A stretch of 64,000 bases of DNA, taken from assembly GCA_023382535.1 (NCBI GenBank), contig JAHDWA010000007.1, positions 1-64,000 on the forward strand. The letters run 5' to 3'. Under the pieces are notes generated by a model, which saw only the letters and a program-made list of their open reading frames with translations, made no database searches and had not been told where the DNA came from. The stretch's first letter is position 1. Each line of letters begins with the position of its first letter. The translations under genes were made by a program, and so were the position numbers. The DNA comes from Anaerolineae bacterium. Its GTDB lineage: Bacteria; Chloroflexota; Anaerolineae; 4572-78; J111. Positions 42,836-59,611 of this stretch are shown here, piece after piece.

Positions 42836-43024
42836 TTAGCTTTGCCGCCCCCCCCCTTTGCCCTTACCCTTGCTGCCAGCGGCAGCCCCGCCAGGCTTAG
42901 AAGTAAACTCCCCGGTGGCCGTATCGTGGTAGGTCCCGGCAGGGCTGGTAACCACCGCTTTTAAGGCATCGAGCTTGAGCCACTCATCCAAAATTTTGCT
43001 TTGAACATCTGTTACTGCTGTCAT
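42836..43024 (-). CDS. tag protein 1, frame ended by a poly-G tract
   Basis: A 62-residue frame that consists of the repeated tag (residues 10-46, KILDEWLKLDALKAV then SPAGTYHDTATGEF) and a Gly/Lys-rich linker. The frame stops 12 bases after a run of nine G (42848-42856). One base fewer would carry it into the next frame (42532-42795), giving a protein of about 164 residues. It sits between the tail chaperone and a neck protein. It overlaps the chaperone end by 4 bp. Confidence 0.65.
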   Translation of the reverse strand: MTAVTDVQSKILDEWLKLDALKAVVTSPAGTYHDTATGEFTSKPGGAAAGSKGKGKGGGRQS

Positions 43025-43428
43025 GATACCTCCGATGAATTTGCTTTCATTTCCCGGCTAACCCGGTCACTCTCCAGAATATTGAGCCATTCGGGTAGCT
43101 TGACCGTGCAGACCATTCGGGCGCGACGAGGGATGGGCAGTTCGATCCAGTCCGCCTCATCTATGCGGAAATAGGCCATTGCCTGGAGTTCCCACAGCGG
43201 CAGGGCGTTGATCTCGCCGCCCCCGCCCTTGACTGCGGCCATCGCCTCAAAGATGGGCTTGCCCTCAAACTGAGCCTGGAAAGTAGCGACGGAGGGCCGC
43301 CGCAATATCCTCCTTACCCAAACGAGGGGGCCGCCCCGCCTCATAAATGGTAGTGTAATCCGCCGCAGTAACCACGCGCTTGCGGTCCTTGGGCTTGAGG
43401 CACTCCTGGATAATCTTTTTGGCCGCAT
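43021..43428 (-). CDS. tail assembly chaperone, frameshifted C-terminal part
   Basis: This frame is +1 (equivalently -2) to the upstream chaperone frame and overlaps it by 164 bp. The conserved half (FEGKPIFEAMAAVKGG and LWELQAMAYFRIDEADW) begins near the end of the overlap, as in lambda gpGT-type products. It is probably expressed as an extension of the 43265-43720 protein by ribosomal frameshifting. Independent starts in the overlap are unlikely. Confidence 0.65.
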   Translation of the reverse strand: MRPKRLSRSASSPRTASAWLLRRITLPFMRRGGPLVWVRRILRRPSVATFQAQFEGKPIFEAMAAVKGGGGEINALPLWELQAMAYFRIDEADWIELPIPRRARMVCTVKLPEWLNILESDRVSREMKANSSEVS

Positions 43429-43720
43429 TACGCACGTATTGCTCTTTCACGAGAAACCGACGCTGCTGATGAGCGACCGCCGCCTGAAATCGCTGATATT
43501 CGACAATTTCCCACTCGTCGGCGTCAGAGCCAGGCAGGGGTGGGGGATTCTGGAGCCGCTCGGCCAGGGGGTAAATTTCGCGGTAGGTTTCCCCGGTCAG
43601 AGCCTTGACCTCGTAGGTGAAGTCGCCGGGATCATCGGGGCCAACGTCCTCCAGGTCGAACAGGCCAAGGGTGGCGACTTCGCAGGGTAGGTTGTCAGAG
43701 AGGATGACTGTCTTGGGCAT
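43265..43720 (-). CDS. tail assembly chaperone (gpG-like)
   Basis: A 151-residue protein upstream of the tape measure and downstream of the probable major tail protein. The overlap arrangement with the next frame is the hallmark of tail assembly chaperones. Candidate shift sites are TTT-C (43279-43282, where tRNA-Phe can move +1) and a run of five C (43326-43330). The C-terminus reads GKEDIAAALRRYFPGSV before the stop. Chaperones coat the tape measure during tail growth. Confidence 0.7.
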   Translation of the reverse strand: MPKTVILSDNLPCEVATLGLFDLEDVGPDDPGDFTYEVKALTGETYREIYPLAERLQNPPPLPGSDADEWEIVEYQRFQAAVAHQQRRFLVKEQYVRNAAKKIIQECLKPKDRKRVVTAADYTTIYEAGRPPRLGKEDIAAALRRYFPGSV

Positions 43721-43724
43721 AGGG

Positions 43725-44264
43725 TCATCCAGCTTCTAAAGCGGTAAGCCTGGTCTCAATAGCCGCCAGGCGCTCCAGGAGAGGCATAACGCCAGTCCGC
43801 CGCAGTTGATAGGTCAGGTGCAGGCCGGTGTGGTCGGCCAGTGTCCCCGCGCCGGCCACGACATCACTGGAATACTCCGGTTCGAGCAAGTAAACGGTGA
43901 TGCCACCCGGTTCTCCTGCCCGAACCTGGCTGCCCTGGATCTGGTCAATCTGGCCGCTGCCAGCAGTTGGCACAATAAAGGCGCGGTGGGGTGGCGGTGG
44001 ACTCCATAGGAAATCAGGGCTGAGGGTGAATTGGTCGGCAGTGCTGTAGGAGAAGGCGACCCGGACATTGGGTAAAGGAAAGCCATTCTCGTCAACCACC
44101 AGGACGACAACCCGCTGCTCCTCAAAGGACTTGGGTTTGGTCGGGCGGATGTTGACCAGGTAAAAATGGCCCTGAGCCTGGGGACTGACCTGCCGTTGCA
44201 ACGTCGCCATCCAGTTCGACTGGATGGCCACAGGCAATACGTTTAAGGGTCGGTGATTTTGCAT
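43725..44264 (-). CDS. virion protein with Ig-like core and leucine-rich end
   Basis: A 179-residue protein. Strands such as EEQRVVVLVVDENGFPLPNV and a motif HRAFIVPTAGSGQIDQIQGS point to a beta-sandwich that may decorate the particle. The end GVMPLLERLAAIETRLTALE is a coiled coil. A second, truncated copy of this end occurs at 44702-44794. The exact role is unknown. Confidence 0.6.
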   Translation of the reverse strand: MQNHRPLNVLPVAIQSNWMATLQRQVSPQAQGHFYLVNIRPTKPKSFEEQRVVVLVVDENGFPLPNVRVAFSYSTADQFTLSPDFLWSPPPPHRAFIVPTAGSGQIDQIQGSQVRAGEPGGITVYLLEPEYSSDVVAGAGTLADHTGLHLTYQLRRTGVMPLLERLAAIETRLTALEAG

Positions 44265-44279
44265 GATTTCACCTCGTTT

Positions 44280-44705
44280 CTATTGACCGTTTAAGGTTTC
44301 AGGCGGGATTATTTTGCCAGCAGCATCTTCAATACGTCTGGAGTAAACAGTGGCCACCTTTTTGGCTTTTCGATTCAAACTACTGTTAAGCCAGGTGTCG
44401 GTATCAATCGTGTGCAGCGTTGAGTCTAGGTCATAGACAACCATCCCACTTGACAAATCGTGTTCCTGAATCAGCGCACGAGCTTGCCTGACCATTTTTG
44501 TAAACGCCGTCCCGTATTGATTAACTATATTACCTTTGGAACTCGATGCAGCTCTACCCGCTCCACCCTTGTTGGCACTATGAGTAAAGCGCCCTGTGGC
44601 TGAATCGTGGTAGGTGCCGGCAGGGCTGGTGATGACAGCCTTGATAGCTTCGAGGCTAAGCCACTCATCCAGGATGGCGGCTTTAGCTTCAGGAATTGTT
44701 TTCAT
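44280..44705 (-). CDS. tag protein 2, possible HAD-like domain
   Basis: A 141-residue protein. Residues 8-41 are the repeated tag (ILDEWLSLEAIKAV and SPAGTYHDSATGRF) with numbering identical to tag proteins 1, 4 and 5 in this window. After a Ser/Gly linker comes MVVYDLDSTLHTIDTDTW, where YDLDSTL resembles the first motif of HAD phosphatases (DxDxT); the rest is too short for a full HAD fold. AAGGAG is upstream and the ATG overlaps the remnant frame as ATGA. Confidence 0.65.
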   Translation of the reverse strand: MKTIPEAKAAILDEWLSLEAIKAVITSPAGTYHDSATGRFTHSANKGGAGRAASSSKGNIVNQYGTAFTKMVRQARALIQEHDLSSGMVVYDLDSTLHTIDTDTWLNSSLNRKAKKVATVYSRRIEDAAGKIIPPETLNGQ

Positions 44706-44794
44706 AAGTCATCTCCTTTTTCTAAGGTGGCGAGTCTTGCCTCGATATTTGCCAGGCGCTCCAGGAGAGGCACAACGCCGGTCCGCCCTTTACC
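44702..44794 (-). pseudogene. 3' remnant of a second Ig-like virion gene
   Basis: A frame starting right after the esterase stop encodes GRTGVVPLLERLANIEARLATLE, matching the end of the 43725-44264 protein (RRTGVMPLLERLAAIETRL). There is no start of its own. This shows that part of the neighbouring gene was duplicated, with tag gene 2 inserted between the copies. Confidence 0.75.
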
Positions 44795-45913
44795 TTATTT
44801 CTGTTTTTGAGTCGCCAGCTTCCATTCAGCAAACGCAAAAGCGGCGGCCTGGCGATTGTGAGTTTGGGTGACAATCTCGCCGGCTCCCTCTTTGACGAGC
44901 CTGGAAACCCACTTGCCCTGTGTTTCGCCCTGCTCGCTCTGGTAAACAATAGAGGTGAAAGCGCCCTGCGTCTTGGAAAATAGTTTGCCGCCAATGCCCT
45001 TCATCCGGCTCCAGCCATTGGCTTGATCGTTGGACTTAAACAGAGTCGCGATCCGCTGACCAAGTTTTGACATCTCAGCAGGGGTCTTTTGATCCATGCG
45101 ATTCAGTTCACCGCCCGAGCGTCCACCGCCCGGCTTTGAGGCAAACTTCCCAGTAGCCGTGTCGTGATAGGTCCCTGCCGGGCTAGTAATAGTCGCTTTT
45201 AAGGCTTCAAGCCTGAGCAACTCATCCAAGATCGCCGCCTTGGTCGAACCGGCCAGTTGGCTGCGCACCCAGGAGACAAAGTCGGCCTTGGCCTGGTCGG
45301 TGGTGTAATGCTTGCCGCCGTAATCCTTGGCCGTGACCTCTGCTCCCGCCTCGCCGAGGGCCTCGCGGGCCTCGTGCGCGTGGCTGACCGGGATGGTGTC
45401 GTCGCCTTTGCCGTGGGCGATAAAGACCGGCGTCTTGACCTTGCCTGCCGGTTGCATACCCAACTTGCCAGAGAACATGGCCAGACCGGCGATGCGCTCG
45501 TGCGACAGGGTGTACTTGCTGCCCAGGACCGCGCCCTCACTGAAACCGGCAACGTAAACCCGGTTGGGATCAACCGGGTAGAGGTCGGGCAAGGCATCAA
45601 CGAACTTGATCAGCGGAGCCTGGTTCGTGCCCCAGGAAAAGCGACCCGTTCCTTCCCCTTTCGCCGTATTGGGCGCGCGCGGGGAGACAATGGCCAGGTT
45701 CTGGGGTAGCCCGCTGACATAGTCCCACATCTGGCGCTCGTTGCCACCAAAGCCGTGCAGCATAAGCAGGACCGGCACGCGCCGGTTAGGGCCGGCATTG
45801 GGCGGGACGTAGGCAAAGTGAATGAGGCCGCTTTTCTTAGTAGCCTCATCGTCCGGGCCAGCCCAGGTCACGCCGTCGCGCTGTTTGGGGAGAGTGGGGT
45901 TATAATCGGTCAT
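44795..45913 (-). CDS. tagged alpha/beta-hydrolase (carboxylesterase-like)
   Basis: A 372-residue protein. Residues 1-220 are an alpha/beta hydrolase: oxyanion region LMLHGFGGNER, nucleophile motif GFSEG (Ser near 125), acid region near residue 180 (AHGKGDDTIPV, catalytic Asp) and His in GKHYTTDQ near 205. It resembles phospholipase/carboxylesterase family proteins. Residues about 224-261 are the tag (ILDELLRLEALKA, SPAGTYHDTATGKF). The last 110 residues form another domain with no recognised family. Here the tag joins two domains instead of being N-terminal. It could attack host envelope lipids or esters. Confidence 0.8.
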   Translation of the reverse strand: MTDYNPTLPKQRDGVTWAGPDDEATKKSGLIHFAYVPPNAGPNRRVPVLLMLHGFGGNERQMWDYVSGLPQNLAIVSPRAPNTAKGEGTGRFSWGTNQAPLIKFVDALPDLYPVDPNRVYVAGFSEGAVLGSKYTLSHERIAGLAMFSGKLGMQPAGKVKTPVFIAHGKGDDTIPVSHAHEAREALGEAGAEVTAKDYGGKHYTTDQAKADFVSWVRSQLAGSTKAAILDELLRLEALKATITSPAGTYHDTATGKFASKPGGGRSGGELNRMDQKTPAEMSKLGQRIATLFKSNDQANGWSRMKGIGGKLFSKTQGAFTSIVYQSEQGETQGKWVSRLVKEGAGEIVTQTHNRQAAAFAFAEWKLATQKQK

Positions 45914-45953
45914 TTAACCTCCGACTTGTGCTGCGGTCGTTATTGTGTTGCTC

Positions 45954-46691
45954 CTATTGCTTGATTACCTGCTTCCATCCTGGTCTGGACCGAGGCTCCT
46001 GCCAATTTGGCTCCCAAGGATGCTCCTTTTCGTAATAAGCCTGCTGAGCCTTCCCCTGCCGGCCAATGTGCTGCTTAAAAACCCCTTCCAGAGTGAGCGG
46101 CTTTTGGCCCATTTCGGTTCGGGCATTGTTAAGCGCGGTCAAGGTTACGTCACGACTAATGCTGGAAGCATAGGCTTGACGACGCGGGCGTAGACCGCCG
46201 CCAGGAATAGGTTTGCCTTCCCCGGTGGTGCTGGACGTACCCTTGGAAACGATGTGCTCATTCACAATCCTGTCAACCAGTTGGTTTTCGAGCTTCTGGC
46301 CGGCCGCGGGATCGTCCTTGTAGACCTGGGCCAGGGATTTACCCCGGTGTTTTGGTACATTGGCCACAAAAGCCGGCTGTTTCCCCAGAGGACTGGTGAT
46401 CTTCCCGCCCCCGGCAGGCATATTTCCATCGGCATCCAGGTTATCCGAGAAGGGGGCTGACTCGCCGTGTTTCAGGCCCTTGTCACCGTACCGGCCACCC
46501 CCCCCTCCACCGCCTTTGGCCCCGGCCTTTCCGCCGCCCTTACCCCCAGCCGCGCCGCCCGGCTTGGAGGTGAACTTGCCGGAAGCGGTGTCGTGATAGG
46601 TGCCGGCCGGGCTGGTGACAACGGCTTTAAGGGCTTCAAGTTTAAGCCACTCGTCCAGGATTTGGCTGCTGACTTCTGCTGCGGTTGCCAT
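45954..46691 (-). CDS. tag protein 4 with unknown C-terminal domain
   Basis: A 245-residue protein. Residues 9-46 are the tag in the same numbering as tag proteins 1, 2 and 5. It is followed by a Gly-rich linker encoded by a poly-G tract (C8 on the plus strand at 46498-46505), which is in frame here. The rest (LGKQPAFVANVPKHRGKSLAQVY, SISRDVTLTALNNARTEMGQ, WEPNWQEPRSRPGW) is not recognised. It ends 40 bp before the esterase gene. Confidence 0.6.
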   Translation of the reverse strand: MATAAEVSSQILDEWLKLEALKAVVTSPAGTYHDTASGKFTSKPGGAAGGKGGGKAGAKGGGGGGGRYGDKGLKHGESAPFSDNLDADGNMPAGGGKITSPLGKQPAFVANVPKHRGKSLAQVYKDDPAAGQKLENQLVDRIVNEHIVSKGTSSTTGEGKPIPGGGLRPRRQAYASSISRDVTLTALNNARTEMGQKPLTLEGVFKQHIGRQGKAQQAYYEKEHPWEPNWQEPRSRPGWKQVIKQ

Positions 46692-46695
46692 GAGG

Positions 46696-47010
46696 TTACC
46701 CTTTCAACCGGTGCGGATCGAACCGGTGCGCCACCTGGGAGACGACCCAAATCGCAACCGGCGCGACCAGGAAGAAGAGAGAGGTAACTGCCGCGTTGAC
46801 CTCGCCGAACTCAGGCCGCCAGTACGGTTGCAGAAAAACGAGGACATAGGGCAAGACCAGGTTGATGACGGCATTGACGAGCTGCTTGACCGAGGGGGAC
46901 AGGTCATGGAACTTACCAAACCGCTCCTGGATAAACGACGTGCCGGTGCCGTAAAACACGGTGACCAGGCCAATGAGAAAAACGAGGGTTGGATCTAGGT
47001 TAGGGTTCAT
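46696..47010 (-). CDS. holin-like small membrane protein
   Basis: A 104-residue protein with three hydrophobic segments (PTLVFLIGLVTVFYGTG, AVINLVLPYVLVFLQP, AAVTSLFFLVAPVAIWVV) and a charged tail (HRFDPHRLKG). Size and layout fit a holin, which would permeabilise the membrane at lysis. No endolysin is next to it. The tagged hydrolase nearby might take part in lysis, but this is speculation. Confidence 0.55.
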   Translation of the reverse strand: MNPNLDPTLVFLIGLVTVFYGTGTSFIQERFGKFHDLSPSVKQLVNAVINLVLPYVLVFLQPYWRPEFGEVNAAVTSLFFLVAPVAIWVVSQVAHRFDPHRLKG

Positions 47011-47040
47011 CAGAAAATACCTCCTTGATTGAAAAGTAAA

Positions 47041-48528
47041 TTAACCCTGCTTGAGTAAGTGGATGGCGCCGACAGTATCGGCGTCCCCGACAATGACGTA
47101 GTGATTGCCGTACTTGCTGGCATAAACGCCGTTGTAGCCGACATTGGTCAGGGTCTCGATCTGGCGGAACCTGGCCCCGCCTTCAACCGACTCGTAAACC
47201 AGACCGCTGCCAGGGGTGCTGTCATCCACGAAGATACGGAAAGTTTCGGTATCGCCCACGTCGAACAGCTTGGCCTTGCCCTCAAGCTCGATAGCGATAG
47301 GAGATTTATTACTCCCGAAGTCCTTGAGGGTCGTCCAGCCGCCCGCGTTGAAAGCATCATTGCCATTGCGGTAGAGCTTGGTCCCTGACCCTAACAGAAT
47401 CGTGCCGTCATAACCGAGGGCAATCGCGGTGCTGGCCGCGCCGTCCGAAGGGCCGGTCTTGGTCGTAAACACGCCCCTGTTGTTGTAGGACTCCTTGAGG
47501 ATGGTGTTGCTCGCCCCCACAGCCCAAACCGAGCCAAATCGGTCTCTGGCAAAGGCGTTGATCTGATTGGCCCCACTGTGGACCAGTGACCAGCTTTCAC
47601 CCTGAGTAGTCGAGACATAGATTTTGCCGTCGCTCAGGCCGGCGTAGACCCGGTTATATTCCGGCCAGGCCAGAGCGGTGACGGTGGCCGCGCCGGCGAC
47701 GATGGTCACTGAGGTGAACGTGCCGGCCCCCTCCGCCCCCAGGTCAATGTCTACGTAGGCGACACGCACGTTGGCTGCCGTGCTGCCGCAGGCCACGATG
47801 ACCCGAAACTTGGTTGCGGCAATGGGCCGCATAACGATCTTGGAGATGTGCTCGTCGTTGGCGAACGGCTGGTTAGCCATTGCCGCCCACGTGCCACCTC
47901 CGGTTTTGGAGTAAAGCACATTGGCCTTGGCTCCGGTCCCCGCATTGCAGCCGGCGTAGAGAATTTTGTCCGCGCCAGGGTAGCCGGTTCCTTCCAGGGC
48001 ATGCTCTTCTTTGAGGCCGGCGATGCAGTTGATGTTTTCGGCTTCAGTTGTAGTCAAGGCGGACAGCGCCAGTTTAAGGATGTCCACGACGGTAAAGAAA
48101 GTGCCGCGGATTTCGTTACGCTGGAGCGCGCCGTTGGCAGTCAGGTCAGGGCCTTCGGGCATCTTTTTGCCCGTCGCTCGCCCATCAGCCAGGTGCCAGA
48201 TCCGGCTCCAGCCATGCGGGTTGTCAATGCTGCTAAACGGGTTAAACCGCTTCTGGGCGTGGAACCGCTTGTTCTTGGCCGCCATCTGTTCCAGGAAGTT
48301 GACCTCAGCCTCCTGGAAGAAGGTAAAGTTGACATCCGGTTGGCCGCCAGGCGGGGACTCTTCAACGCCGTAAGGAACAAAGTCGCCATCCGGCCCATTA
48401 ACATAAACAACCTTGCGCCCGCCAAGCGGGTCGTCGGCTCCGCTCATGCCGCCGGGCCGAAAGATGTCCATCAGTGAGCCGGGGCCATCGGTAGGAAACC
48501 AGGTTGCATATCGATTCATCGTGCTCAT
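47041..48528 (-). CDS. probable major tail protein with beta-propeller
   Basis: A 495-residue protein. The first 150 residues (PDGDFVPYGVEESPPGGQPDVNF, FFQEAEVNFLEQMAAKNKRF) look like a tail tube domain. The rest is a propeller-like array with BNR/sortilin-type repeats (VLYSKTGGGTWAAM, KIYVSTTQGESWSLV). It lies between connector genes and the tail chaperone, where the major tail protein is expected. The propeller may be displayed around the tail. AAGGAG precedes the ATG, and the start overlaps the upstream stop (TAATG). Confidence 0.65.
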   Translation of the reverse strand: MSTMNRYATWFPTDGPGSLMDIFRPGGMSGADDPLGGRKVVYVNGPDGDFVPYGVEESPPGGQPDVNFTFFQEAEVNFLEQMAAKNKRFHAQKRFNPFSSIDNPHGWSRIWHLADGRATGKKMPEGPDLTANGALQRNEIRGTFFTVVDILKLALSALTTTEAENINCIAGLKEEHALEGTGYPGADKILYAGCNAGTGAKANVLYSKTGGGTWAAMANQPFANDEHISKIVMRPIAATKFRVIVACGSTAANVRVAYVDIDLGAEGAGTFTSVTIVAGAATVTALAWPEYNRVYAGLSDGKIYVSTTQGESWSLVHSGANQINAFARDRFGSVWAVGASNTILKESYNNRGVFTTKTGPSDGAASTAIALGYDGTILLGSGTKLYRNGNDAFNAGGWTTLKDFGSNKSPIAIELEGKAKLFDVGDTETFRIFVDDSTPGSGLVYESVEGGARFRQIETLTNVGYNGVYASKYGNHYVIVGDADTVGAIHLLKQG

Positions 48529-48845
48529 TACTTCTTACTCCTTCTACCCTCAAAGACGGGCAGTTGACTAGCGCCAGGTTGAACCTCGTCGGGGGCCTCC
48601 TCTACGACGACCGGCGGCTCATCCGGCAAGGGTTGTTTGACTTTTTCGACCAGGTAGGCGGTCAATTGATGGATGTCGCAGCCGCAAATATTGCGGCGAA
48701 AGATGCCAGGCAGGTTAGCCACCGTTTCGGGCGTCACGTCAACCTGGCTAAAGTGCTTTTCCAGACAGGCCGTATATTTCTCGAACGGGGAGCCGGCCAG
48801 TAATTTGTTTAGGTGCCCTGAAAGGCGAGTATTTGAATCAAGCAT
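48528..48845 (-). CDS. small phage protein with disordered acidic tail
   Basis: A 105-residue protein. The first half is helical (LSGHLNKLLAGSPFEKYTACL) with two Cys in RRNICGCDIHQL; the second half is Pro/Glu-rich (PLPDEPPVVVEEAPDEVQPG). It overlaps both neighbours. No family is recognised. Confidence 0.55.
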   Translation of the reverse strand: MLDSNTRLSGHLNKLLAGSPFEKYTACLEKHFSQVDVTPETVANLPGIFRRNICGCDIHQLTAYLVEKVKQPLPDEPPVVVEEAPDEVQPGASQLPVFEGRRSKK

Positions 48846-49188
48846 AGAAGTCTCCTGGATAAACCATAATTGCTGCGACGATCACGTCCGTGGCGTCGCT
48901 GTAAGTAACCTGGACCTCGTTATTGTCGCCCCGGTAGCCCTCGACAAAGGGTCCGATATAAACCCGCTCACCGGCTGCCACAGTCCTGGTCAGAGGAGTC
49001 ACGGTCTGTCCGGCCACTTCCTGACGGTAGGGAATGGTAATGGTTCGGGATGAGAGACCGTCATTCTGGACCACCAGAAACGTTGTCAACCCACCCTGAA
49101 AGTAGTTACCGCCGGTATGGGCTGCTTCAAGGATCGGAACGAGGCCGGCAATGGTGATCTGCTGGACCTTTAACTCTCTACTGGCCAT
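48838..49188 (-). CDS. small virion protein, beta-rich
   Basis: A 116-residue protein of alternating strands (FLVVQNDGLSSRTITIPYRQEV, TRTVAAGERVYIGPFVEGY, VQVTYSDATDVIVAAIMVYPG). It lies between the tail terminator-like gene and a helical small gene. It resembles a decoration or head-completion protein, but the assignment is by position and composition. Confidence 0.55.
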   Translation of the reverse strand: MASRELKVQQITIAGLVPILEAAHTGGNYFQGGLTTFLVVQNDGLSSRTITIPYRQEVAGQTVTPLTRTVAAGERVYIGPFVEGYRGDNNEVQVTYSDATDVIVAAIMVYPGDFYA

Positions 49189-49196
49189 AATGCCCC

Positions 49197-49685
49197 CTAA
49201 TCATCCGCCGCGATAAAGACCGGGCTGGGCTTCTGTTTGAGATGAACCACCTGCACCGAAAGGTTGAGTTTGAAGCCGTGGCAGTCCATAAACGGATAGT
49301 TCAGGGCGGCGCCGTTGGTCGGCGACGGCAGGATAGCCGACATCTGGAGCGGGCTGTCCGGGTCCACCTGGACCACCGGGTTGTAGGAGATCGGCTCCGC
49401 GCCCTGCTGTAAATGCTTGCGGTAAAGCGCCGCCAACTTGTCCATGTATTCCAGGCAAACCTGTTTGACCATGTTGAAGTCCCCCTGCCCGATGGCCTCG
49501 ACGATGACATCTATCTCGAACGGCATGGAGGTCTGGTACGGCCCGATGACGGCTGCGCCTGGCCAGGTCAGGATGAGCGGTAGGTGCGCCGTCGTCACCG
49601 AGGTCGGATATTCCGCCAGGGGTGGCGCGTTGCCGATAGACCGGTTTACGGCCTGGAGTGCGTCAATCGCGGCCAGGTAGATCAC
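49197..49685 (-). CDS. tail terminator-like protein
   Basis: A 162-residue protein coupled by ATGA overlap to the connector gene. The pattern LPLILTWPGAAVIGPYQTSMPFEIDVIVEAI and the YMDKLAALYRKHLQQ helix fits proteins that close the tail tube near the head-tail joint. It occupies the position expected for this role. Direct homology cannot be shown. Confidence 0.6.
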   Translation of the reverse strand: MIYLAAIDALQAVNRSIGNAPPLAEYPTSVTTAHLPLILTWPGAAVIGPYQTSMPFEIDVIVEAIGQGDFNMVKQVCLEYMDKLAALYRKHLQQGAEPISYNPVVQVDPDSPLQMSAILPSPTNGAALNYPFMDCHGFKLNLSVQVVHLKQKPSPVFIAADD

Positions 49686-50590: not shown

Positions 50591-50593
50591 TGG

Positions 50594-50923
50594 CTATTTG
50601 TTACCGCCCTTCTTGCCTTTGGCCGGAGCAGGTGGTTCAACCACCTCAGTAGGTGGTTCAACCACCTCAGCAGGCGGTTCAGCCAGAGCAGGTGGTTCAA
50701 CCACCTCAGCAGGCGGTTCAGCCAGAGCAGGCGGTTCAACCACCTCAGCAGGTGGTTCAGTCGGCTTCGACTTGGCTGGCTCAGCCAGTTTCGCATTGAT
50801 CAGGAACGTGGCATAACCGTCAGGAAAATCCGCCTCAACCCCCCGTGCCAGATGTTTGGCTCGCAAAGCGCGAGGGGACTCGTAATCCCGGTAAGGGCCG
50901 GCAACCAAAATTGTGACTTTCAT
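50594..50923 (-). CDS. small protein with Pro/Glu/Val repeats
   Basis: About 109 residues from the ATG at 50921-50923. The N-terminal MKVTILVAGPYRDYES domain is followed by a repeat region (EPPAEVVEPPALAE units) and a basic end (KGKKGGNK). The repeats are coded by tandem DNA with inverted-repeat units. It lies 3 bp before the connector gene. The function is unknown. Confidence 0.6.
   Translation of the reverse strand: MKVTILVAGPYRDYESPRALRAKHLARGVEADFPDGYATFLINAKLAEPAKSKPTEPPAEVVEPPALAEPPAEVVEPPALAEPPAEVVEPPTEVVEPPAPAKGKKGGNK
50626..50760. repeat. tandem repeats with 15-bp palindromes inside a coding region
   Basis: A palindrome GGTGGTTCAACCACC occurs at 50631-50645, 50652-50666 and 50691-50705, with variants (GCGGTTCAACCACC) after that. 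Together they make up a tandem array with a main period of about 39 bp. Copy number may vary between relatives. Confidence 0.7.
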
Positions 50924-51012
50924 AAAACAACCTTTCTGTATCTTTCGCCTCAAAAAAGAGTGGCGCGACCCGTTGGGCCAGGCCACTCTTTTAGCTCAGA
51001 GAAAGCCTACGG

Positions 51013-51489: not shown

Positions 51490-51496
51490 TGCTTCA

Positions 51497-51961: not shown

Positions 51962-52007
51962 ATTGGATCTCCTTTATGGTTAAGCTAAAAAGACAATTTG
52001 CTCAGGC

Positions 52008-53399
52008 TTAAGCCGCCGCCGCAACCTTTTGAGCCGCGATCTTCCAGGGCTGCCAGACATCCCCACCGACCCGCCGCCTGACATGGAACTCGACCAGGTT
52101 GATCCCGGTGTTGGAGTCGTTGTAACGGCGAATGGCGAGGCCCAACCGCTCGACGATCATATAGCCGCTCATGTCGCCAAACAGCAGCGGGTAAGCGCCT
52201 GCGGCGATGTCGGGCATGGCCTCGGTCTCGTTCCAGGGAGAGCGCAGGAACCGCTCGCCGTTATCCAGGTACTCAAAGTAAAACCTCCCCTGGCCGTCGG
52301 TGAAGTTCTCGATGACGCTGGCGGTGTCGCTGTTACCCAGCCAGGAGGCCCGGTTGGGGTTGCGGTACTGGGTGGCGATGCCGCGGCGCAGTTTCTTGAC
52401 CCCAGTCACCAATAGGTCGGTCGCGCTGCCGGAGACGACCTCATTGAAGAGGTGCTTATTTTCCCCGTTGGGCAGCAGGCCGCGCGGCTGGCCGGCCCCG
52501 GACCCGGTGGCAAAAACAATGTCTTCATCCACGGCCAGGGTATCGGCGACTTCCTCGTTAAAGACATCCACGATATTCTGGGCGTCTTCCAGCATGCTGG
52601 CCGAGATGCGGACCTTGTAGGTATACAGCTCGACGTTGATGCGTTCGAGGCCGAAGGTCATGTTCTGCTGGCCGGGATTGGCCGTTTCCGATCCCCACTG
52701 GCCGCGAATATTGCCGGTGTAGCGGTTGTCACCGCCGGTAATTTTGAGCCATTCAATCGAGTTGCTGGCGGTCTGAACGATCCGTGCCCCGGAGTTGCGG
52801 ATAGCGGTCAGACCGCGGATGCGGCGGTTGATGTCGTTGGAGATTTGCGGAGGCACGGCAAAGCCGCCCAGGATTTCCTGGCCTTCGACCATCGTCGCCT
52901 TGATTTCAGGTACGCCAAAACCGCTGACAATCATACTTTTGACGTGTTCGGGCAGCCACAATTGGCGGCGCAAGATCGCTTCCGGCCGGCCACCACGCAG
53001 GTAAGCGCCAAAGGCTTTGGTCTGGTCGTGGATGAGCTGGCGGTAGTCGCCTCCATAAATCTCACGCATGACGACACTCTCTGCGTTGGCTTCCAGCTTG
53101 CCCAGGGCTTCAAGCTGGATGTCGCGCACCGCCTTGGTGACCTTGTCTTCCGGGCCGAAGCCTGCATCGGGGTCATCGTCGGGGTCATCGTCAGGCAAAT
53201 CAACGTCACCCCGGTCAGGCTCGTCCAGCTCGGCCATCATGATTTGGGTTTTTGCCGCGACTTCGGCCTGGCGACGGAGATCGGCCGCTTCTTTGGTTAA
53301 TTGTTCGGCCTTATCCGGGTCGGGGACATCCAACTCCAGGTGAGCCTTTGCTTCCAGCAGTTTCTGTTTTGCCTGCCGGTAGAGTTCTTGAGGGTCCAT
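52008..53399 (-). CDS. major capsid protein, HK97 fold
   Basis: A 463-residue capsid protein. The N-terminal 130 residues are a helical, acidic delta domain (YRQAKQKLLEAKAHLELD, DVDLPDDDPDDDPDAGFG) that is probably removed by the protease. The HK97 core follows with the usual elements (GGFAVPPQISNDINRRI, EWLKITGGDNRYTGN, RISASMLEDAQ, GTGSGAGQPRGLL-type region written FATGSGAGQPRGLLPNG). It is placed after the protease and a tag gene, as in many siphoviruses. Confidence 0.9.
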   Translation of the reverse strand: MDPQELYRQAKQKLLEAKAHLELDVPDPDKAEQLTKEAADLRRQAEVAAKTQIMMAELDEPDRGDVDLPDDDPDDDPDAGFGPEDKVTKAVRDIQLEALGKLEANAESVVMREIYGGDYRQLIHDQTKAFGAYLRGGRPEAILRRQLWLPEHVKSMIVSGFGVPEIKATMVEGQEILGGFAVPPQISNDINRRIRGLTAIRNSGARIVQTASNSIEWLKITGGDNRYTGNIRGQWGSETANPGQQNMTFGLERINVELYTYKVRISASMLEDAQNIVDVFNEEVADTLAVDEDIVFATGSGAGQPRGLLPNGENKHLFNEVVSGSATDLLVTGVKKLRRGIATQYRNPNRASWLGNSDTASVIENFTDGQGRFYFEYLDNGERFLRSPWNETEAMPDIAAGAYPLLFGDMSGYMIVERLGLAIRRYNDSNTGINLVEFHVRRRVGGDVWQPWKIAAQKVAAAA

Positions 53400-53479
53400 A
53401 ATGTTTTTGCTCCTTTTGTAAAGATAAGGTTAAAGTAGATAAGAGAACGCCGCCGTTAGAGGGCGACCAGGGTCAACGG

Positions 53480-54031
53480 TTACGATTTTTTGGCATTGGT
53501 TTCCTCCAACTCCCGATAGTGCTGCCGTAAATGTTTTTGCCCCTGAGCCACCGCTTCGGGGCTGAGTTTGGGCTTTGACCTGGCCCCGTTGATCGCCCCC
53601 CACGCTGCGGCTAATCCGCGTCGGCTGAGCACCACCTGGCCGTCCACCATCTCGTGATGCGGCCCCCAGCCCATCGAGGCGAAGAACTTGGGCTTCCCGT
53701 CAGTTCCTTTCCCGAAAGCCTGGGGTGGAACGTAGGTGTAAATGTCTTCAACCTGCTGGCGGGTTAGCTCGCCGTTCGCATACATGCGGGCGGCCTGGTT
53801 GCCGAGCTGAACCTTGTCTACCTCGCTCCAGGGCCGCTCACTGACTTGCATCGGCTGGGCTTTACCTTGAAAATCGGGTAGCCGTCTGGCGGCACTACCG
53901 GGCCGGGAGGTAAACTTCCCGGTGGCGCTGTCGTGGTAGGTGCCCGCGCCGGTGGTGATAACCGCCCGGAGCGACTCCAGGGCCAACCATTCGTCAAGTA
54001 GCGCCGCTTTGAGCGCAGCAACATTGGCCAC
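53480..54031 (-). CDS. tag protein 5 between protease and capsid
   Basis: A 183-residue protein. Residues 8-45 are the tag (ALLDEWLALESLRAV, GAGTYHDSATGKF) with the standard numbering. The C-terminal part (IYTYVPPQAFGKGTDGKP, FFASMGWGPHHEMVDGQ, RRGLAAAWGAINGARSKPKLSP) is unlike known families. The position between protease and capsid is where scaffolds are found, so the tag may be a head-assembly or packaging signal. Confidence 0.65.
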   Translation of the reverse strand: MANVAALKAALLDEWLALESLRAVITTGAGTYHDSATGKFTSRPGSAARRLPDFQGKAQPMQVSERPWSEVDKVQLGNQAARMYANGELTRQQVEDIYTYVPPQAFGKGTDGKPKFFASMGWGPHHEMVDGQVVLSRRGLAAAWGAINGARSKPKLSPEAVAQGQKHLRQHYRELEETNAKKS

Positions 54032-54045
54032 ACCGGCACTCTCCG

Positions 54046-55959
54046 TCAGGGTACAAAAATCTGGTAGCGGTCGGGTAACTGCTCCAGCTTGAGCAGCTCG
54101 TCCAACACTGCCGCCTTGGTGGTTGCCACAATTTCGGCAGGGGTCGGTGCCGGCACTGCCGGCGATTCGGCCTCCGCTGCCGCTAATGGGTCATCCAGCC
54201 CCAGCACCCGGTAAGCCGACTTGATCTGCTCAATAGGCAGCAGCCGGTGCTGCATGGGCGTAGGGGTCAGGGTGTCTTCGATAACGGGAAAAGCCTTGAG
54301 GCAGCCATCCTCCGCCCGGCGAACCAGGTGGCTGGCCGACCCCGGCGAGTAAAAGAGGGCCTTGGCCTCCAGTAGGGGGCGAACCATCTTGAGGTACTTG
54401 CTGCGCTTGTCGAGCCAGCTTTCGACCCAGACGCCGATGTCGTCGGGCATCGCCTTGATCCGATGTCCAACCACGCTCAGCCCCACGGCCTGGTCCAGGC
54501 CGTGATGGAAGAGGGTCGGGGCTTTGGGATAACGGTCGAGCCACAGCTCGGTGGACTTGATGAAGTAATCCCCGCTCAGGTCCTTCTCATCCGGCGCACC
54601 ATACAGGACCAGCGGACCGCCGATAATGAGGCCATCCGAGGTTTCACCCAGGGCTTTGATAGCAAAATCGGGGTCATTAAAGCTGGTGAGGGCCTTGGTC
54701 TCCTCGTAGCGCACGACGACCGGGACCGGCTCGTCAAAGGTCACCTCACCGTTGACGATTGTGTAGGGGTAGGAAAACAACTTGCCGTCGCGCCCGATGA
54801 CGAGGGCGTCGTCCAGGACATCGCGAGGGTAGCCCGGGATACGTTTGTTGTCCCAGGCCGCTGCCACCTGCATCTGCCGTTCGTTCAGGCTCCAGGCTTT
54901 GGTGCCAGTCACGGTGAACTTGTTGGCATCGCTGGCGCAGGCGGCCCCCAACTTGACCGAGGTGTCGTGCATGGTCTGGATAGCCTCAAAGTCTGCCTTG
55001 CTATGCCGTGCGCCGGTCTTGATGTCTTCTAACGCCTCTGGCGACGGGACCGCTTTGGCCTCACCGGCCGCTCCTTCGGCCACTTCTTCGGCCGCGCCCT
55101 CGCCCTCACCTTCAGCCTCAGTCGCCGCATCGTTTTCGAGGAAGTCGTCACAAACAAACGTGTCCTCGACCGCGATTTCGTAGTTTTCACAACGACCGTT
55201 GCGGAAGAAGTTGCAGTTGGCACAACTGCTGCCTTTCTCGGTGGCTTTGTGGTAGTTGGGTGGGCCATCTTCCCCCTCTGCCTTGATTTCGGGTTTTGGA
55301 GCCGCGTCCTGCGACCGAAGGGAGTGTCGAAGGGCCTCGCCGGCCGGCTCTGTCACTTCCGGCGTAGGGGCCGGTTCGGTCTCGACCGGCGGGTCTTGCA
55401 CTTCAACCGATTTGGCTTCTGCCGAAGCGGTTGAATCGGCTGGCTTTGTCATGGATTCCTCCTTGTCAGCTAACTTGAATGGGTAAACATCGAACGTGCC
55501 ATCCTCCTTTTTGTGGGAGTAGGACAGTTCAGTAAAGGTGATTTGCAATGGGGGCAGGTCGGGAACCTCGACTTCGGTGCGGTCTCCCTCTAGGTACTTC
55601 AAGGTGATGTGGGGATCGAAGCCGTGGTCGTCGGCCAGGGTGTAGCCATTCTCGACCAGTGTCTCGGCCAGGGATTGGCGAAACTCGGGTAGAGCCGGAG
55701 AATCGAAAGTGGCGTGCAGAACCGGGCGACCGTCGCCACCTTCACTAAACACGCCAAAACCGGAGATTTCGCCGCTGAGCGGCGGATGCTCGCTGCACCA
55801 ACGTTCGAGCAGGTTAGCTAGGTGCTCGTGGGTCAGCCTGTCCTTGTCATCAAACGCGACCAGGGTTAAATGTAGACGGTTGGCCGGCTCACCGTCCGGC
55901 ACGGCCAGGACCTCAGCGGCCGGTTGGGGCAAATAAAGAATGATGAATCGGTCTGGCAT
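54046..55959 (-). CDS. 2H phosphoesterase fused to prohead protease
   Basis: About 637 residues from the ATG at 55957-55959. Residues 1-160 are a 2H phosphoesterase (LigT-like) with motifs HLTL and HITL. A charged linker carries a Cys cluster (SCANCNFFRNGRCENYEI, FVCDDF). The C-terminal 350 residues are a prohead protease, with His in FHHGLDQAVG, Ser in KALFYSPGSASHLV and a helix end. The protein closes with half a tag (TKAAVLDELLKLEQL). The protease cleaves delta domain and possibly tagged proteins. Confidence 0.75.
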   Translation of the reverse strand: MPDRFIILYLPQPAAEVLAVPDGEPANRLHLTLVAFDDKDRLTHEHLANLLERWCSEHPPLSGEISGFGVFSEGGDGRPVLHATFDSPALPEFRQSLAETLVENGYTLADDHGFDPHITLKYLEGDRTEVEVPDLPPLQITFTELSYSHKKEDGTFDVYPFKLADKEESMTKPADSTASAEAKSVEVQDPPVETEPAPTPEVTEPAGEALRHSLRSQDAAPKPEIKAEGEDGPPNYHKATEKGSSCANCNFFRNGRCENYEIAVEDTFVCDDFLENDAATEAEGEGEGAAEEVAEGAAGEAKAVPSPEALEDIKTGARHSKADFEAIQTMHDTSVKLGAACASDANKFTVTGTKAWSLNERQMQVAAAWDNKRIPGYPRDVLDDALVIGRDGKLFSYPYTIVNGEVTFDEPVPVVVRYEETKALTSFNDPDFAIKALGETSDGLIIGGPLVLYGAPDEKDLSGDYFIKSTELWLDRYPKAPTLFHHGLDQAVGLSVVGHRIKAMPDDIGVWVESWLDKRSKYLKMVRPLLEAKALFYSPGSASHLVRRAEDGCLKAFPVIEDTLTPTPMQHRLLPIEQIKSAYRVLGLDDPLAAAEAESPAVPAPTPAEIVATTKAAVLDELLKLEQLPDRYQIFVP

Positions 55960-55989
55960 TTTTGCGTCCGTTTTGCTCACGAAATTGGC

Positions 55990-56053
55990 AAAAAGAAAAA
56001 GCGGCGCAGAGACCACGAGGGTCTGTGCGCCGCTGGGTTTACACCGTTAGGCT
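55990..56053 (-). terminator. duplicated hairpin terminator, copy B
   Basis: A hairpin at 56001-56033 (GCGGCGCA arms, plus GAGACC/GGGTCT) and a T-rich tract on the minus strand (55990-56000). It is nearly identical to copy A at 38015-38078. It lies between the small head genes and the protease gene and may regulate read-through to the capsid part. Confidence 0.7.
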
Positions 56054-56143
56054 AATCCGGCCAGCTTCCTGGCCGCGTGATGTCTTATGACATCTTATTT
56101 ATGCTGTTAGACACATTGTAACACAAGTATAAATCTGTGTCAA

Positions 56144-56446
56144 TCAGGATTCGTTCATATCCTGGTAGTTCACGGGGCCGCCGCGCCGCTCTTCCCGGCT
56201 GGGCACAGTCCGGGGCAGCCCCAACATTTCGTCGGTCAGGCAAAGGGCCGAAATGAGAACACGCCGCTGCTGCTCGCCCAGGCGGCGTTGTTCCGGGGAT
56301 AGAAGGAGTTGGGGCAGAGGAGTATAGCCTACATTGGGGACGGAGCGGGGCATGCCGAGCAGGTCCTCCAGCAGGCAGAGGATTCGTATTGTCTCATGGC
56401 GGTGGCCTTCAAAAAAAACCGCCACTTCGGTTCGTAGCGTTACCAC
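56144..56446 (-). CDS. small helical phage protein with internal repeat
   Basis: A 100-residue protein starting at GTG (56444-56446). Two similar segments, RILCLLEDLLGMPRSVP and SALCLTDEMLGLPRTVP, show an internal duplication. The last residues GPVNYQDMNES use the same DNA motif (GTGAACTACCAGG) as near 37983 and 34410. The start overlaps the upstream stop. The function is unknown. Confidence 0.6.
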   Translation of the reverse strand: MVTLRTEVAVFFEGHRHETIRILCLLEDLLGMPRSVPNVGYTPLPQLLLSPEQRRLGEQQRRVLISALCLTDEMLGLPRTVPSREERRGGPVNYQDMNES

Positions 56447-56742
56447 GTGCCCGCCTCTAATTTGGAGTGAATGTAGCGGATGGCCTGCTCGCAGATGGCG
56501 GCAAACTTGGGCCGGCGCGTTCGCTGCCTGATCAGGCTATTAAGCCGTTTGGGGGTCACGCCGCGCCGCAGCGCCTTCTCAAATACCTCACACAAGGCGA
56601 GGTTGCGTTCCTGGAGCCAGGAGTAAGCATCCCGGTCCAGGATTTGAGCCACTTCGTCGAGAGCTTCGGCGGCCGCCTCGTTGGGCGTGGGGTCGGCGAC
56701 CGGTTGCAGGTCCTGGGTTAATAGGTGGTCAAAGTCAAGCAT
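56440..56742 (-). CDS. small helical phage protein
   Basis: A 100-residue protein. It is all-helical (EAAAEALDEVAQILDRDAYSWLQE, NLALCEVFEKALRRGVTPKRLNSLI). Start and stop overlap both neighbours. It is in the head-assembly region after the MuF-like gene, and is not recognised as a known family. Confidence 0.55.
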   Translation of the reverse strand: MLDFDHLLTQDLQPVADPTPNEAAAEALDEVAQILDRDAYSWLQERNLALCEVFEKALRRGVTPKRLNSLIRQRTRRPKFAAICEQAIRYIHSKLEAGTW

Positions 56743-59611
56743 GGGTTGTTCCCTCCTGTTTCTTCTTTGGCTTGGCTAATTCTTGGGCCTGGTCTTTGAG
56801 GGCTTGCGCGGCGTCCTCCTGGAGCCGCCTGGCCCATTCACCAAACGTCTTTTGGCCCTGCGCCTCGGCTCGCTCCTGCTGGCCAACCTGACGGCGGTAG
56901 GCCCGCTCGTTGGCGGCCATCGCCTTTCCCAATCGCCGGTTTGCCTGGCGCATCTGCCGCTGCTGCTGGCGTTCCATCGCCTCAACTTCCCGCTCCTGTT
57001 GGGTACCCAACCTGGCCCGGCTCTGCTCGGCCTGGTTGTTCAGCTTTGCCATGTCATCACCCAGCGATTGAGTAGCCCCGGCCAGGGCCTGGTCGCGGGC
57101 CTTCTGTCGTTTGAGGTGGCCGACCGCGTCGCGGCTGCGCTCCATCTCTTCCGCATCGGCGGCGGCAGCCTGGCGGATGTTGCGCATCTGCTTCTGGTGG
57201 CTCCTCAGCCGGTCCTCACGAGCGTGAGTGAGCTTGCGCTCCAGGTCGGCCCTCTGTTCGGCCTGGCGGATTGCTGCCTCCTGGGTTGCCTCGGCAAACC
57301 CATTCTTGGCGTCTTCCAGGTATTCCTTGTGGGCCTGAAGGGTGTCTTCTGTGCGCTGGCGCTGGGCGATCTCCTGGTCCTGGCGCTGCCGGGCGAAGCC
57401 TTCGAGCATGTCCAGCCGCTCCCGCTCGGTGGCGACGGCGACTTCCTGCTCCAGGAAGTCCCGTTCGAGGGCCAGCTCGCGGGCCAGCCTGGCCGCGTCG
57501 GCCTCCGCCTCCTGCTCCTCCTCGGGCGCGCCGCCCGCGACCGGCTTGGCCCCCCCCTGCTTGGGCGCAAACTGGCCCGTGGCCGAATCGTGGCTGGTCC
57601 CGGCCGGGCTGGTCACGACCGCTTTTTGGCCCGGAGTGACCAGCAGAATCGGCACAAAGAAACGAGGGGAGGTCGCCTTAAGCGCGACAGTCTGCTTCGG
57701 TTTAAAGGACTTGTCCGGGTCGCCGTAAAAATACTCGTCCATGTCGAGCTGGTAAATGGTGTAGCTCTTAATCCAGGAGGGCGGGATGGGCTTCTCTAGC
57801 CGCCAGCCCTCCTTGTTTTTGGCCGCCGAGAGCAGCCCCGGCTCTTTGGTGTCGAAGATCAGTTCGCCGGCCTGGTCGGCCGGGATCTCAAGCTCAAAGA
57901 CGATGCCCTGGACGATGTCGGTCTTGTTGAAGGGGCGGTTACGGGCGCGTTCAAAAGCGTAGTGCATGGCCATGTCCGGGTCTTCGGCGACGTAAACCGA
58001 GGGCGCCCGGCCATGCCAGGACTTGCCGGGCTTGAGACCGTTGGCGGTCACTTCTTGCAAGATCTGGGGGACGGTCCCGTGAAAGGTGGTGACCGGCTGG
58101 GCCGCTGCTCCCGGCTTGTGGGTAAATTTGCCGGTCGCCGTATCGTGGTAGGTACCCGCCTCGGTTACGATGATCGCCTTGAGACTGGTCTCGACCTCGA
58201 AGGATTCGCCGCTGTCGAGCGGGGTCATCTCGATGATGACCTTGGTCCGTTCATCTAACCCCTCAACCTTTTTGAGCGCGTTCATCGTGGCGTGGATGTT
58301 GCGCACCGACTTCTTATCCCAGGCCCGGTCAAAAAAGGAGACACCCGATGCGCCCTGGTTGAAGGTGATGCTTTCGACCGAGCCGTCTTTGCGCAGGCGG
58401 AAGTCGAAACGGGTGTGGCTGTCCTCCCAGCCGCGCTGCTTGCCGGTCTGGCCAGGAAAGAGGGCATGCGCAAAATCCTGGTGAGAGCCGTTCAAGCCAA
58501 AGACCATGATTTGGCCGTTGGCCGGGTTGCGCACAGCAGGAACGCGCAGGATGTCCGGCTCATTAAAGGTCTTGCTCGCCTTTTTAGCCAGGGCCTCGCG
58601 ATTGGAGCGAACGAAGTCATGGATTTCGGCCACGCTTTGCGGGTTCTTGATGTGGCCAGCCAGGAAGTTGCCGTACTGGTCCAGGCTGTGGGGGACCGCG
58701 AGGTGGGTCTGCGGCCCGAAACCAGCGGGCCGGCGGGTAAATTTGCCGGTCGCCGAATCGTGATAGGTGCCGGCCCGGCTGAGAACCACCGCCTTGAGTA
58801 CCGAACGCGGTTTGGGCACGCGCAGAGGATTCCACTGCTCGCTCAGCTTGACACAGTCATCGCAATGTTCGGCAGCCGGGTCGAGTACCCAATATACCAG
58901 CCAGCCGTCTTCCTGCTCCACAATGCGCAGGTGGCAGCGACAGCGGGTCCGGCAGCGTGTCTGGCCGTCGCCAGGAACGCGAGACAGGTAGTCGTAAAGG
59001 TTGCCACCAAAAACGGCGATTTTGCCTTTCTCGAAAGCCTGGGTCGCCGACTCGATATAGAGCTTGATCCGGTTGGCGATGCGGACGATCAGGTTTTCCG
59101 GGTTGGCGCTGCGGTACTTGCCGCTTTGAATATCCTGCCCGAAGGCTTGCAGGTACTCATACTGCTTCTTGAGAGCCGCGCCAATGCGTCCATAATCCTG
59201 GGGCGTCATCTGGGAGCGCCCGCCCTTAGCCATCGCGTATTGGGACAGGTAGGTGTCCTTGATGAGTTGGCGCTGCCGGAGCAGCCAGTCTTGCAGGCTG
59301 ATGTCGCCCCGGACCAACTGCGCGGTGAGCTGCTCCGCTCGCAGGCTTTGCCGGTCGGTGTAGAGGTCGCGCAGTTCGAGCATGCGCTTGGCCCCAATGA
59401 TTTGGCCGGTAGCCAGGTGGCGGTATTGGTGCAGTCGGGGATCCCATTCCCAGAGCGGTTTGTTAGAGGCATCAGCCTTGGTGTGGTCGAGGAGGGTGTA
59501 GGTCAGGCCAGGTAGGGACCGATAGCGGGTAGGCAGGACACCGAGCGGTTGTACGTCATCGCCGGCCAGAAAAGAAAGACCCGGGTGTGAATCGTAAAGA
59601 GCGTTGGTCAC
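56735..59611 (-). CDS. MuF-like multidomain head protein with three tags and ART-like domain
   Basis: A 958-residue protein starting at GTG (GTGA overlap with the upstream stop). Residues 1-260 resemble minor capsid MuF proteins, with a Cys-rich motif (TRCRTRCRC, HCDDCVKL). Tag copies lie at about 269-292, 475-500 and 660-686. Between copies 1 and 2 is a domain of unknown family (PHSLDQYGNFLAGHI, GLNGSHQDFAHALFPG). Between copies 2 and 3 is an ADP-ribosyltransferase-like domain (FHGTVPQILQEVTANGLKPG, VYVAEDPDMAMHYAF). Residues about 730-950 are a coiled coil closely similar to the tape measure. It probably carries effector domains into the host. Confidence 0.75.
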   Translation of the reverse strand: MTNALYDSHPGLSFLAGDDVQPLGVLPTRYRSLPGLTYTLLDHTKADASNKPLWEWDPRLHQYRHLATGQIIGAKRMLELRDLYTDRQSLRAEQLTAQLVRGDISLQDWLLRQRQLIKDTYLSQYAMAKGGRSQMTPQDYGRIGAALKKQYEYLQAFGQDIQSGKYRSANPENLIVRIANRIKLYIESATQAFEKGKIAVFGGNLYDYLSRVPGDGQTRCRTRCRCHLRIVEQEDGWLVYWVLDPAAEHCDDCVKLSEQWNPLRVPKPRSVLKAVVLSRAGTYHDSATGKFTRRPAGFGPQTHLAVPHSLDQYGNFLAGHIKNPQSVAEIHDFVRSNREALAKKASKTFNEPDILRVPAVRNPANGQIMVFGLNGSHQDFAHALFPGQTGKQRGWEDSHTRFDFRLRKDGSVESITFNQGASGVSFFDRAWDKKSVRNIHATMNALKKVEGLDERTKVIIEMTPLDSGESFEVETSLKAIIVTEAGTYHDTATGKFTHKPGAAAQPVTTFHGTVPQILQEVTANGLKPGKSWHGRAPSVYVAEDPDMAMHYAFERARNRPFNKTDIVQGIVFELEIPADQAGELIFDTKEPGLLSAAKNKEGWRLEKPIPPSWIKSYTIYQLDMDEYFYGDPDKSFKPKQTVALKATSPRFFVPILLVTPGQKAVVTSPAGTSHDSATGQFAPKQGGAKPVAGGAPEEEQEAEADAARLARELALERDFLEQEVAVATERERLDMLEGFARQRQDQEIAQRQRTEDTLQAHKEYLEDAKNGFAEATQEAAIRQAEQRADLERKLTHAREDRLRSHQKQMRNIRQAAAADAEEMERSRDAVGHLKRQKARDQALAGATQSLGDDMAKLNNQAEQSRARLGTQQEREVEAMERQQQRQMRQANRRLGKAMAANERAYRRQVGQQERAEAQGQKTFGEWARRLQEDAAQALKDQAQELAKPKKKQEGTTHA

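What the first reader, a model, noticed from the sequence alone, without database searches (positions are those of the whole stretch)
42887..58803. A repeated peptide tag links unrelated proteins across the head and tail operon
A sequence of two halves, a helix LDEWLxLEALKAV and then SPAGTYHDxATGKFTSKPG, occurs nine times, one copy having only the helix half: 42887-42997, 44583-44684, 45131-45243, 46554-46667, 53897-54010, half at 54046-54120, and three in 56735-59611 (57552-57630, 58111-58185, 58735-58803). In four proteins it starts the protein with identical numbering (Trp15, Gly30, Tyr32, His33). Attached domains differ: alpha/beta hydrolase, ART-like, possible HAD-like, and unknown. Inference: it is a modular signal that sends cargo into the head or to the protease and host. 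I do not know a published name for it; a loose likeness to RDxxGRF-type stretches in phage head proteins is from memory.
Basis: partly seen in the sequence, partly recalled or inferred. Interest (0 to 1): 0.92.

Follow-up and report, generated by a model that had tools for sequence, protein, structure and literature searches.

The report
Shared address tag on phage proteins
A prophage in a Chloroflexota-type bacterium carries the same short peptide on several unrelated head-related proteins, and a related prophage carries its own version, which looks like a label for loading proteins into the virus head, although this has not been shown by experiment.

Summary
The repeated peptide is real, but not quite as described. 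Of nine places, five carry both halves (acidic helix plus YHDxATGKFxxKPGG core). The three in the minor head protein carry only the core. One, at the C-terminus of a prohead-protease-type protein, carries only the helix. Synonymous sites are near saturation while amino acids are kept (core dN/dS about 0.18), so the peptide is under selection. A collinear prophage in another genome (G010) has six tags of its own version plus one helix-only copy, within 15 kb of 7.9 Mb. The two phages share many structural genes, but most tagged accessory genes differ, and modules change at the tag. Of copies that have a core, 12 of 12 outside the minor head protein have the helix and 0 of 7 inside it do, so the halves probably do different jobs. 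Best reading: a prohead-targeting label, analogous to the T4 capsid targeting sequence. The helix brings proteins in, a [LIV][KR]A junction is a candidate maturation-protease site, and core plus linker hold swappable cargo. Virion location, cleavage and partner are untested. No repeated tag was seen at 45 loci with related proteases, so the system looks narrow, though strongly diverged tags could be missed.

The parts
42887..43006 (-). tag, helix + core, N-terminal in 62-aa tag-only protein 42836-43024
44568..44687 (-). tag, helix + core, N-terminal in 44280-44705 (short protein with a weak, sub-threshold Acid_PPase match)
45125..45244 (-). tag, helix + core, internal in 44795-45913 between alpha/beta hydrolase and an unknown C-terminal module
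46554..46673 (-). tag, helix + core, N-terminal in 45954-46691, followed by Gly/Lys-rich linker and unknown module
53894..54013 (-). tag, helix + core, N-terminal in 53480-54031; rest resembles a scaffold/protease-associated domain
54076..54123 (-). helix half only (no KA junction, no core), at the C-terminus of the prohead-protease-type protein
54046..56016 (-). 2H phosphoesterase + prohead-protease-type protein ending in the tag helix
58721..58822 (-). tag core a (no helix) in minor head protein, after the cysteine-rich part
58106..58207 (-). tag core b (no helix) in minor head protein
57551..57649 (-). tag core c (no helix) in minor head protein, before the coiled C-terminal part
56735..59611 (-). 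minor head protein: conserved N-terminal part, tag a, cargo a, tag b, cargo b (ART-like, weak), tag c, coil
52008..53399 (-). HK97-type major capsid protein; presumed pro-domain junction EIKATMVEGQEILGG
60535..62427 (-). portal protein (untagged)

Best explanation
The peptide is a two-part prohead address label. Helix half: a short acidic amphipathic helix that brings a separately made protein into the assembling prohead, as the T4 capsid targeting sequence does. Junction: [LIV][KR]A, a candidate site for the phage's own maturation protease. Core half: YHDxxTGKFxxKxGG plus, in several copies, a flexible Gly/Lys linker, which tethers or marks swappable cargo. In the minor head protein, already part of the head, only junction and core are needed; in the window the protease-type protein needs only the helix. 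Shown: the repeats, selection, restriction to a prophage late operon in the genomes searched, module exchange at the tag, and the helix/core split. Inferred: entry into the prohead, cutting at the junction, delivery of cargo with the DNA.
For: Nine places in window late genes. Core pS 0.64, pN 0.22, dN/dS about 0.18. A collinear prophage in G010 has six tags of its own version plus one helix-only copy, all in C6:163530-178300; best hit outside E 0.024. Mean identity over a 15-residue core 0.695 within and 0.468 between the two phages (p 0.0001 by 10,000 label shuffles). Of copies with a core, helix in 12 of 12 outside the minor head protein (5 window, 4 G010, P0002-P0004) and 0 of 7 inside it (3 window, 2 G010, P0006, P0007), counted by eye; Fisher p 2e-5, but copies share descent. 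The protease-type protein's C-terminus matches the window tag helix (0 of 500 shuffles for each of four window helices), which parallels the SPN3US protease C-terminal propeptide that its authors propose targets it to the prohead (PMC7411985, passages). K or R at the junction in 20 of 20 copies that reach it, A next in 19 of 20. MCPs have [ILM]K at the presumed pro-domain junction in 8 of 9 aligned. P0006 and P0007 minor heads lack the two cargo modules. Hydrolases of the two phages (42-43% identity) are both followed by a tag, while the modules after it show no BLASTP match at E 1.
Against: No virion proteomics. The [LIV][KR]A site is not shown to be cut; the window's helix-only copy lacks it, and an LxE site of the T4 type also lies in the window helix (by eye). 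The G010 protease C-terminus matches its own tag helix only weakly (p 0.03-0.16), and an untagged phage's protease C-terminus (L066) matches the G010 helix at p 0.004-0.03, so acidic helices can match by composition. The tag helix is not like its own MCP N-terminal region (p 0.26-0.46), so no partner is indicated. The window hydrolase's core is nearly as close to its G010 counterpart (0.67) as to other window tags (0.75), so the two versions are only partly separate there. No repeated short tag at 45 loci around related proteases or 11 loci around related minor heads: phages with this protease do without it. Conservation of the core beyond the candidate cut is not explained by targeting alone.
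Confidence: 0.5

Rival explanations
1. Processing linker: the conserved part is mainly a maturation-protease recognition site that cuts multidomain head proteins into separate pieces inside the prohead; the helix is incidental or a chaperone handle.
For: In the minor head protein the cores sit between modules; K or R in 20 of 20 junctions; MCP junction similar in 8 of 9.
Against: Does not explain the N-terminal helix at a near-fixed place in separate proteins, the helix-only copies, or conservation of YHDxxTGKF after the candidate cut.
Confidence: 0.2
2. Neutral or mechanical module joint: a linker that spread by intragenomic recombination as domains were shuffled, with no targeting role.
For: G010 tags share more codons than codon usage predicts (193 of 284 against 124 expected), a sign of recent spread or conversion; window tags slightly more too (246 of 494 against 198). 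Modules change at the tag.
Against: Window tags have near-saturated synonymous change but conserved amino acids. Copies start at near-fixed N-terminal positions in separate proteins, where no joint is needed.
Confidence: 0.15
3. Address for another destination: the tag binds the tail, the portal/neck or a phage chaperone, so tagged proteins ride on the tail or at the portal rather than in the head.
For: Four of the six tagged or half-tagged genes other than minor head lie between the head-tail adaptor and tape-measure genes; minor head is fused to portal in G010.
Against: Tag or helix is on protease-type and scaffold-like proteins, kinds that act inside proheads; the window scan found it in no identified tail gene.
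Confidence: 0.15

Closest known systems
T4 capsid targeting sequence (IPI, IPII, IPIII, Alt) and gp21 processing
   Same: Short N-terminal peptide on several otherwise unrelated internal proteins; cargo turns over between related phages; one T4 cargo (Alt) is an ADP-ribosyltransferase (PMC9026906, passages).
   Different: In T4 the first 10 residues of IPIII suffice and gp21 cuts after L/I-X-E; here the label is about 40 residues with a conserved core after the junction, occurs internally and at a C-terminus, and sits in an HK97-type phage. Cutting and targeting untested.
Phage P1 DarB N-terminal packaging signal
   Same: N-terminal signal sending defence cargo into a head; 30 residues sufficed for a reporter (PMC9024508, passages).
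   Different: The P1 authors report that BLAST shows no consensus among Dar N-termini; here the consensus is plain across the copies.
SPN3US prohead protease gp245 C-terminal propeptide
   Same: Protease C-terminus proposed as its own prohead-targeting element (PMC7411985, passages).
   Different: Here a similarly placed helix is shared with cargo proteins; removal by auto-cleavage untested.
MuF polymorphic toxins and polyvalent proteins
   Same: Minor head protein carrying variable effector-like modules; ART modules and 2H phosphoesterase fused to MuF or portal are described (PMC5576092, PMC5512222, passages).
   Different: Modules are separated by a reiterated tag that also labels separate genes; the passages read mention no such tag ('linker' 0 occurrences in PMC5512222).

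Membership tests
Capsid targeting sequence of the T4 kind | one short terminal peptide shared by several unrelated proteins of one phage | tested here: met
   second phage
Capsid targeting sequence of the T4 kind | sufficient to bring a foreign protein into proheads | not testable with these tools
   needs a GFP-fusion experiment
Capsid targeting sequence of the T4 kind | removed by the prohead protease | tested here: inconclusive
   conserved [LIV][KR]A junction and similar MCP junction, no cleavage data
MuF-type minor head protein with cargo modules | minor head family N-terminal part followed by variable modules | tested here: met
   phrog_24776 (function unknown in PHROGs) E 2e-23; fused to portal in G010; P0006/P0007 lack the modules. 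The MuF name for this part is recalled; no call gives it
HK97-type prohead protease (54046-56016) | located next to, or fused to, the major capsid protein | tested here: met
   one gene from the MCP in the window; A10 domain and MCP match in one reading frame in 7 relatives (L098, L106, L111, L118, L121, L125, L126) and in neighbouring genes in L063, L065, L066, L067
HK97-type prohead protease (54046-56016) | protease fold and catalytic residues | tested here: inconclusive
   phrog_3894 only E 0.06; structure model failed, pLDDT 33; invariant His and Ser in 5 aligned sequences
ADP-ribosyltransferase fold (cargo b) | ART fold | tested here: inconclusive

The most novel reading that the evidence does not exclude
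A modular loading system in HK97-type phages: each phage lineage has its own version of a two-part label. The helix that brings the maturation protease into the prohead has been copied onto any protein to be loaded, and a reiterated core lets effector modules be strung in the minor head protein and released by the protease.
Probability: 0.28. Interest if true: 0.85.

Novelty: new variant of a known kind. Interest (0 to 1): 0.66.

Why it matters
The papers read here define capsid targeting peptides in T4 and P1, and the P1 authors saw no shared consensus among P1's Dar proteins. A phage with a plain consensus at nine places, and a relative with its own version, makes the rules of protein loading into HK97-type heads directly testable, gives a sequence handle for finding unknown ejected proteins, and could serve as a general loading tag.

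Tried and rejected
Tag searches that found no true relative: viral contigs with the tag alignment (14 stretches, none confirmed), a degenerate DNA pattern (4 hits, all chance on reading), an exact pattern in genome contigs (0), tblastn against 50,697 phage records (one halovirus hit at E 10, in two records; none). G010-type tags in 400 phylum genomes gave 0, but G010 was evidently not in that sample, so the call had no positive control. The class search scored at most 18 candidates a genome and found only 2 of G010's tags, so diverged versions can be missed. Minor head and protease proteins as single queries found no viral relatives.

Considered and dropped: the protease's own N-terminal AIKAL as a cleavage site; in relatives this is the start of the domain. 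Likeness of tag helix to the MCP N-terminal region: none. Homology of the 45954 module with the G010 hydrolase C-terminal module: E 0.001, largely Gly-rich, not claimed. A DNA-level recombination handle in the window: synonymous sites too diverged. Protease structure prediction failed. HK97 cleavage after Lys103 is recalled; the paper search for it gave nothing, and PMC12749128 passages give only a 102-residue scaffold domain.
Full report
What is there. The window is a prophage late operon, minus strand, with host-type genes (MlrC, an ABC transporter ATPase) and a serine recombinase at its low end. Its MlrC gene product is 91% identical to that of Anaerolineales H5_CFX7. No whole genome is held for the window. 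Head genes run from the terminase (62914-63924) through portal, minor head, protease-type protein and HK97-type MCP, with a head-tail adaptor and then the tape measure at 34860-37610. Against 50,697 phage records the MCP and terminase found only matches under 60% identity (259 and 2287 records).

The repeat. A six-frame scan and gene-against-gene BLASTP find the peptide at the nine stated places and, at the thresholds used, nowhere else in the window. Five places hold helix plus core, the three in the minor head protein hold the core only, and the protease-type protein ends with the helix only. Over 26 core codons and 28 pairs, pS is 0.64 and pN 0.22, dN/dS about 0.18; for the helix, synonymous sites are saturated. 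Identical codons among same-residue pairs are 246 of 494 against 198 expected from codon usage. So the copies are old and kept at protein level.

Relatives. In a word- and length-limited search of 5.8 billion proteins, the tag region of 45954 found itself and three proteins, P0002-P0004, with a closely similar tag on another module (4 of 15 candidates). Two minor head proteins, P0006 and P0007, are 72% and 70% identical over the matched part but have one degenerate core and lack both cargo modules of the window protein. A tag profile over 25 order genomes had matches in 2, and over 396 class genomes in 11, at E 0.05; only G010 (E 0.002) was convincing. For eight of the other ten I looked at the locus's best match to the core; none was tag-like. 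P0009, the G010 hydrolase, is from an Anaerolineae MAG.

The G010 prophage is collinear in its head part. By BLASTP, MCP is 65% identical, the protease-type protein 50% over 326 residues, and portal and minor head 39%, fused there into one 1361-aa protein; of 37 window late genes compared, 18 had a match at E 1e-3, several of them mainly through the tag. Its tags read like LLEAELTLASVKANPYHDPKTGKFAPKAGG: on three accessory proteins (one of 61 aa, little more than the tag), in the hydrolase fusion, and twice, core only, in the minor head protein. A seventh, helix-only copy ends a DUF6496 protein. All lie in C6:163530-178300. The hydrolases match (42-43%) and each is followed by a tag, but the modules after it show no match at E 1. 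Cargo a of the minor head protein is shared (28%, E 1e-18), while cargo b is ART-like in the window (weak) and has an HExxH stretch in G010. G010 tags share more codons than expected (193 of 284 against 124), so they spread or converted more recently there. Core identity is 0.695 within and 0.468 between phages, but for the hydrolase alone the contrast is small (0.75 against 0.67).

Two halves. Among copies with a core, helix is present in 12 of 12 outside the minor head protein and 0 of 7 inside it (counted by eye; table tested; relatedness makes the p value of 2e-5 only indicative). The junction has K or R in 20 of 20, A in 19 of 20, and I/L/V before it in 19 of 20 copies that reach it; the window's protease-end helix does not. 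[LIV][KR]A makes up 39 of 11,137 tripeptides in the window's late genes. Between KA and HD lie 9 residues in the window and 3 in G010, so junction and core are separate elements. MCPs related to this phage have [ILM]K at the presumed pro-domain junction in 8 of 9 aligned.

Which proteins carry it. Apart from cargo, the tag or its helix is on the protease-type protein and on 53480, whose remainder matches the N-terminal part of the Geobacillus phage GBK1 scaffold protein (E 2e-6) and a Thermus phage head maturation protease (E 3e-3). The protease assignment rests on relatives: in 7 loci the same domain and an HK97-type MCP match lie in one reading frame, and in 4 viral contigs in neighbouring genes. 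The structure model failed.

Mechanism. These facts fit a prohead label: helix for entry, junction for possible maturation cutting, core and linker for holding cargo. The T4 and SPN3US precedents come from passages of PMC9026906, PMC7411985 and PMC10052503, P1 from PMC9024508. The P1 authors state that BLAST found no consensus among Dar N-termini. Nine searches of the held open-access library listed no title or abstract start that describes this tag; the lists are capped, and only passages of seven papers were read.

Limits. No repeated short tag was seen in 45 loci around protease relatives, many of them short or partly cellular contigs (up to six matching pairs shown per locus), or in 11 around minor-head relatives. 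The system is thus known from two prophages and five proteins without genome context. The core resembles a YRDxxTGRF-like stretch at the N-terminus of minor head relatives (loose pattern in 8 of 14, three of them the window protein, P0006 and P0007), so it may have been borrowed from there. Cargo b's ART likeness rests on a low-confidence model.

Noticed in passing
window 56735-59611 and 34860-37610: The coiled C-terminal part of the minor head protein (residues 696-952) matches a piece of the phage's own tape measure protein (residues 519-782), 38% identity, E 1e-45.
   Followed up: partly
window 59608-60168: A response-regulator receiver domain (PF00072, E 2e-19) lies in the head operon between the portal and minor head genes.
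   Followed up: no
window 40943-41662: A proteasome-subunit-like protein (PF00227, E 2e-11) lies in the stretch between the neck and tape-measure genes.
   Followed up: no
window 54046-56016: A 2H phosphoesterase domain is fused in front of the prohead-protease-type domain; 2H fused to MuF or portal is known from polyvalent proteins.
   Followed up: partly
L023 10962-15047 (G010): Portal and minor head protein with cargo are fused into one 1361-aa protein.
   Followed up: partly
window 50622-50760: Short tandem repeats in the gene 50594-50986, whose protein holds repeated AEPPAEVVEPP-like units.
   Followed up: no
L098, L106, L111, L118, L121, L125, L126: The protease-type domain and an HK97-type capsid protein match lie in one reading frame in these Anaerolineae-class loci.
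   Followed up: partly
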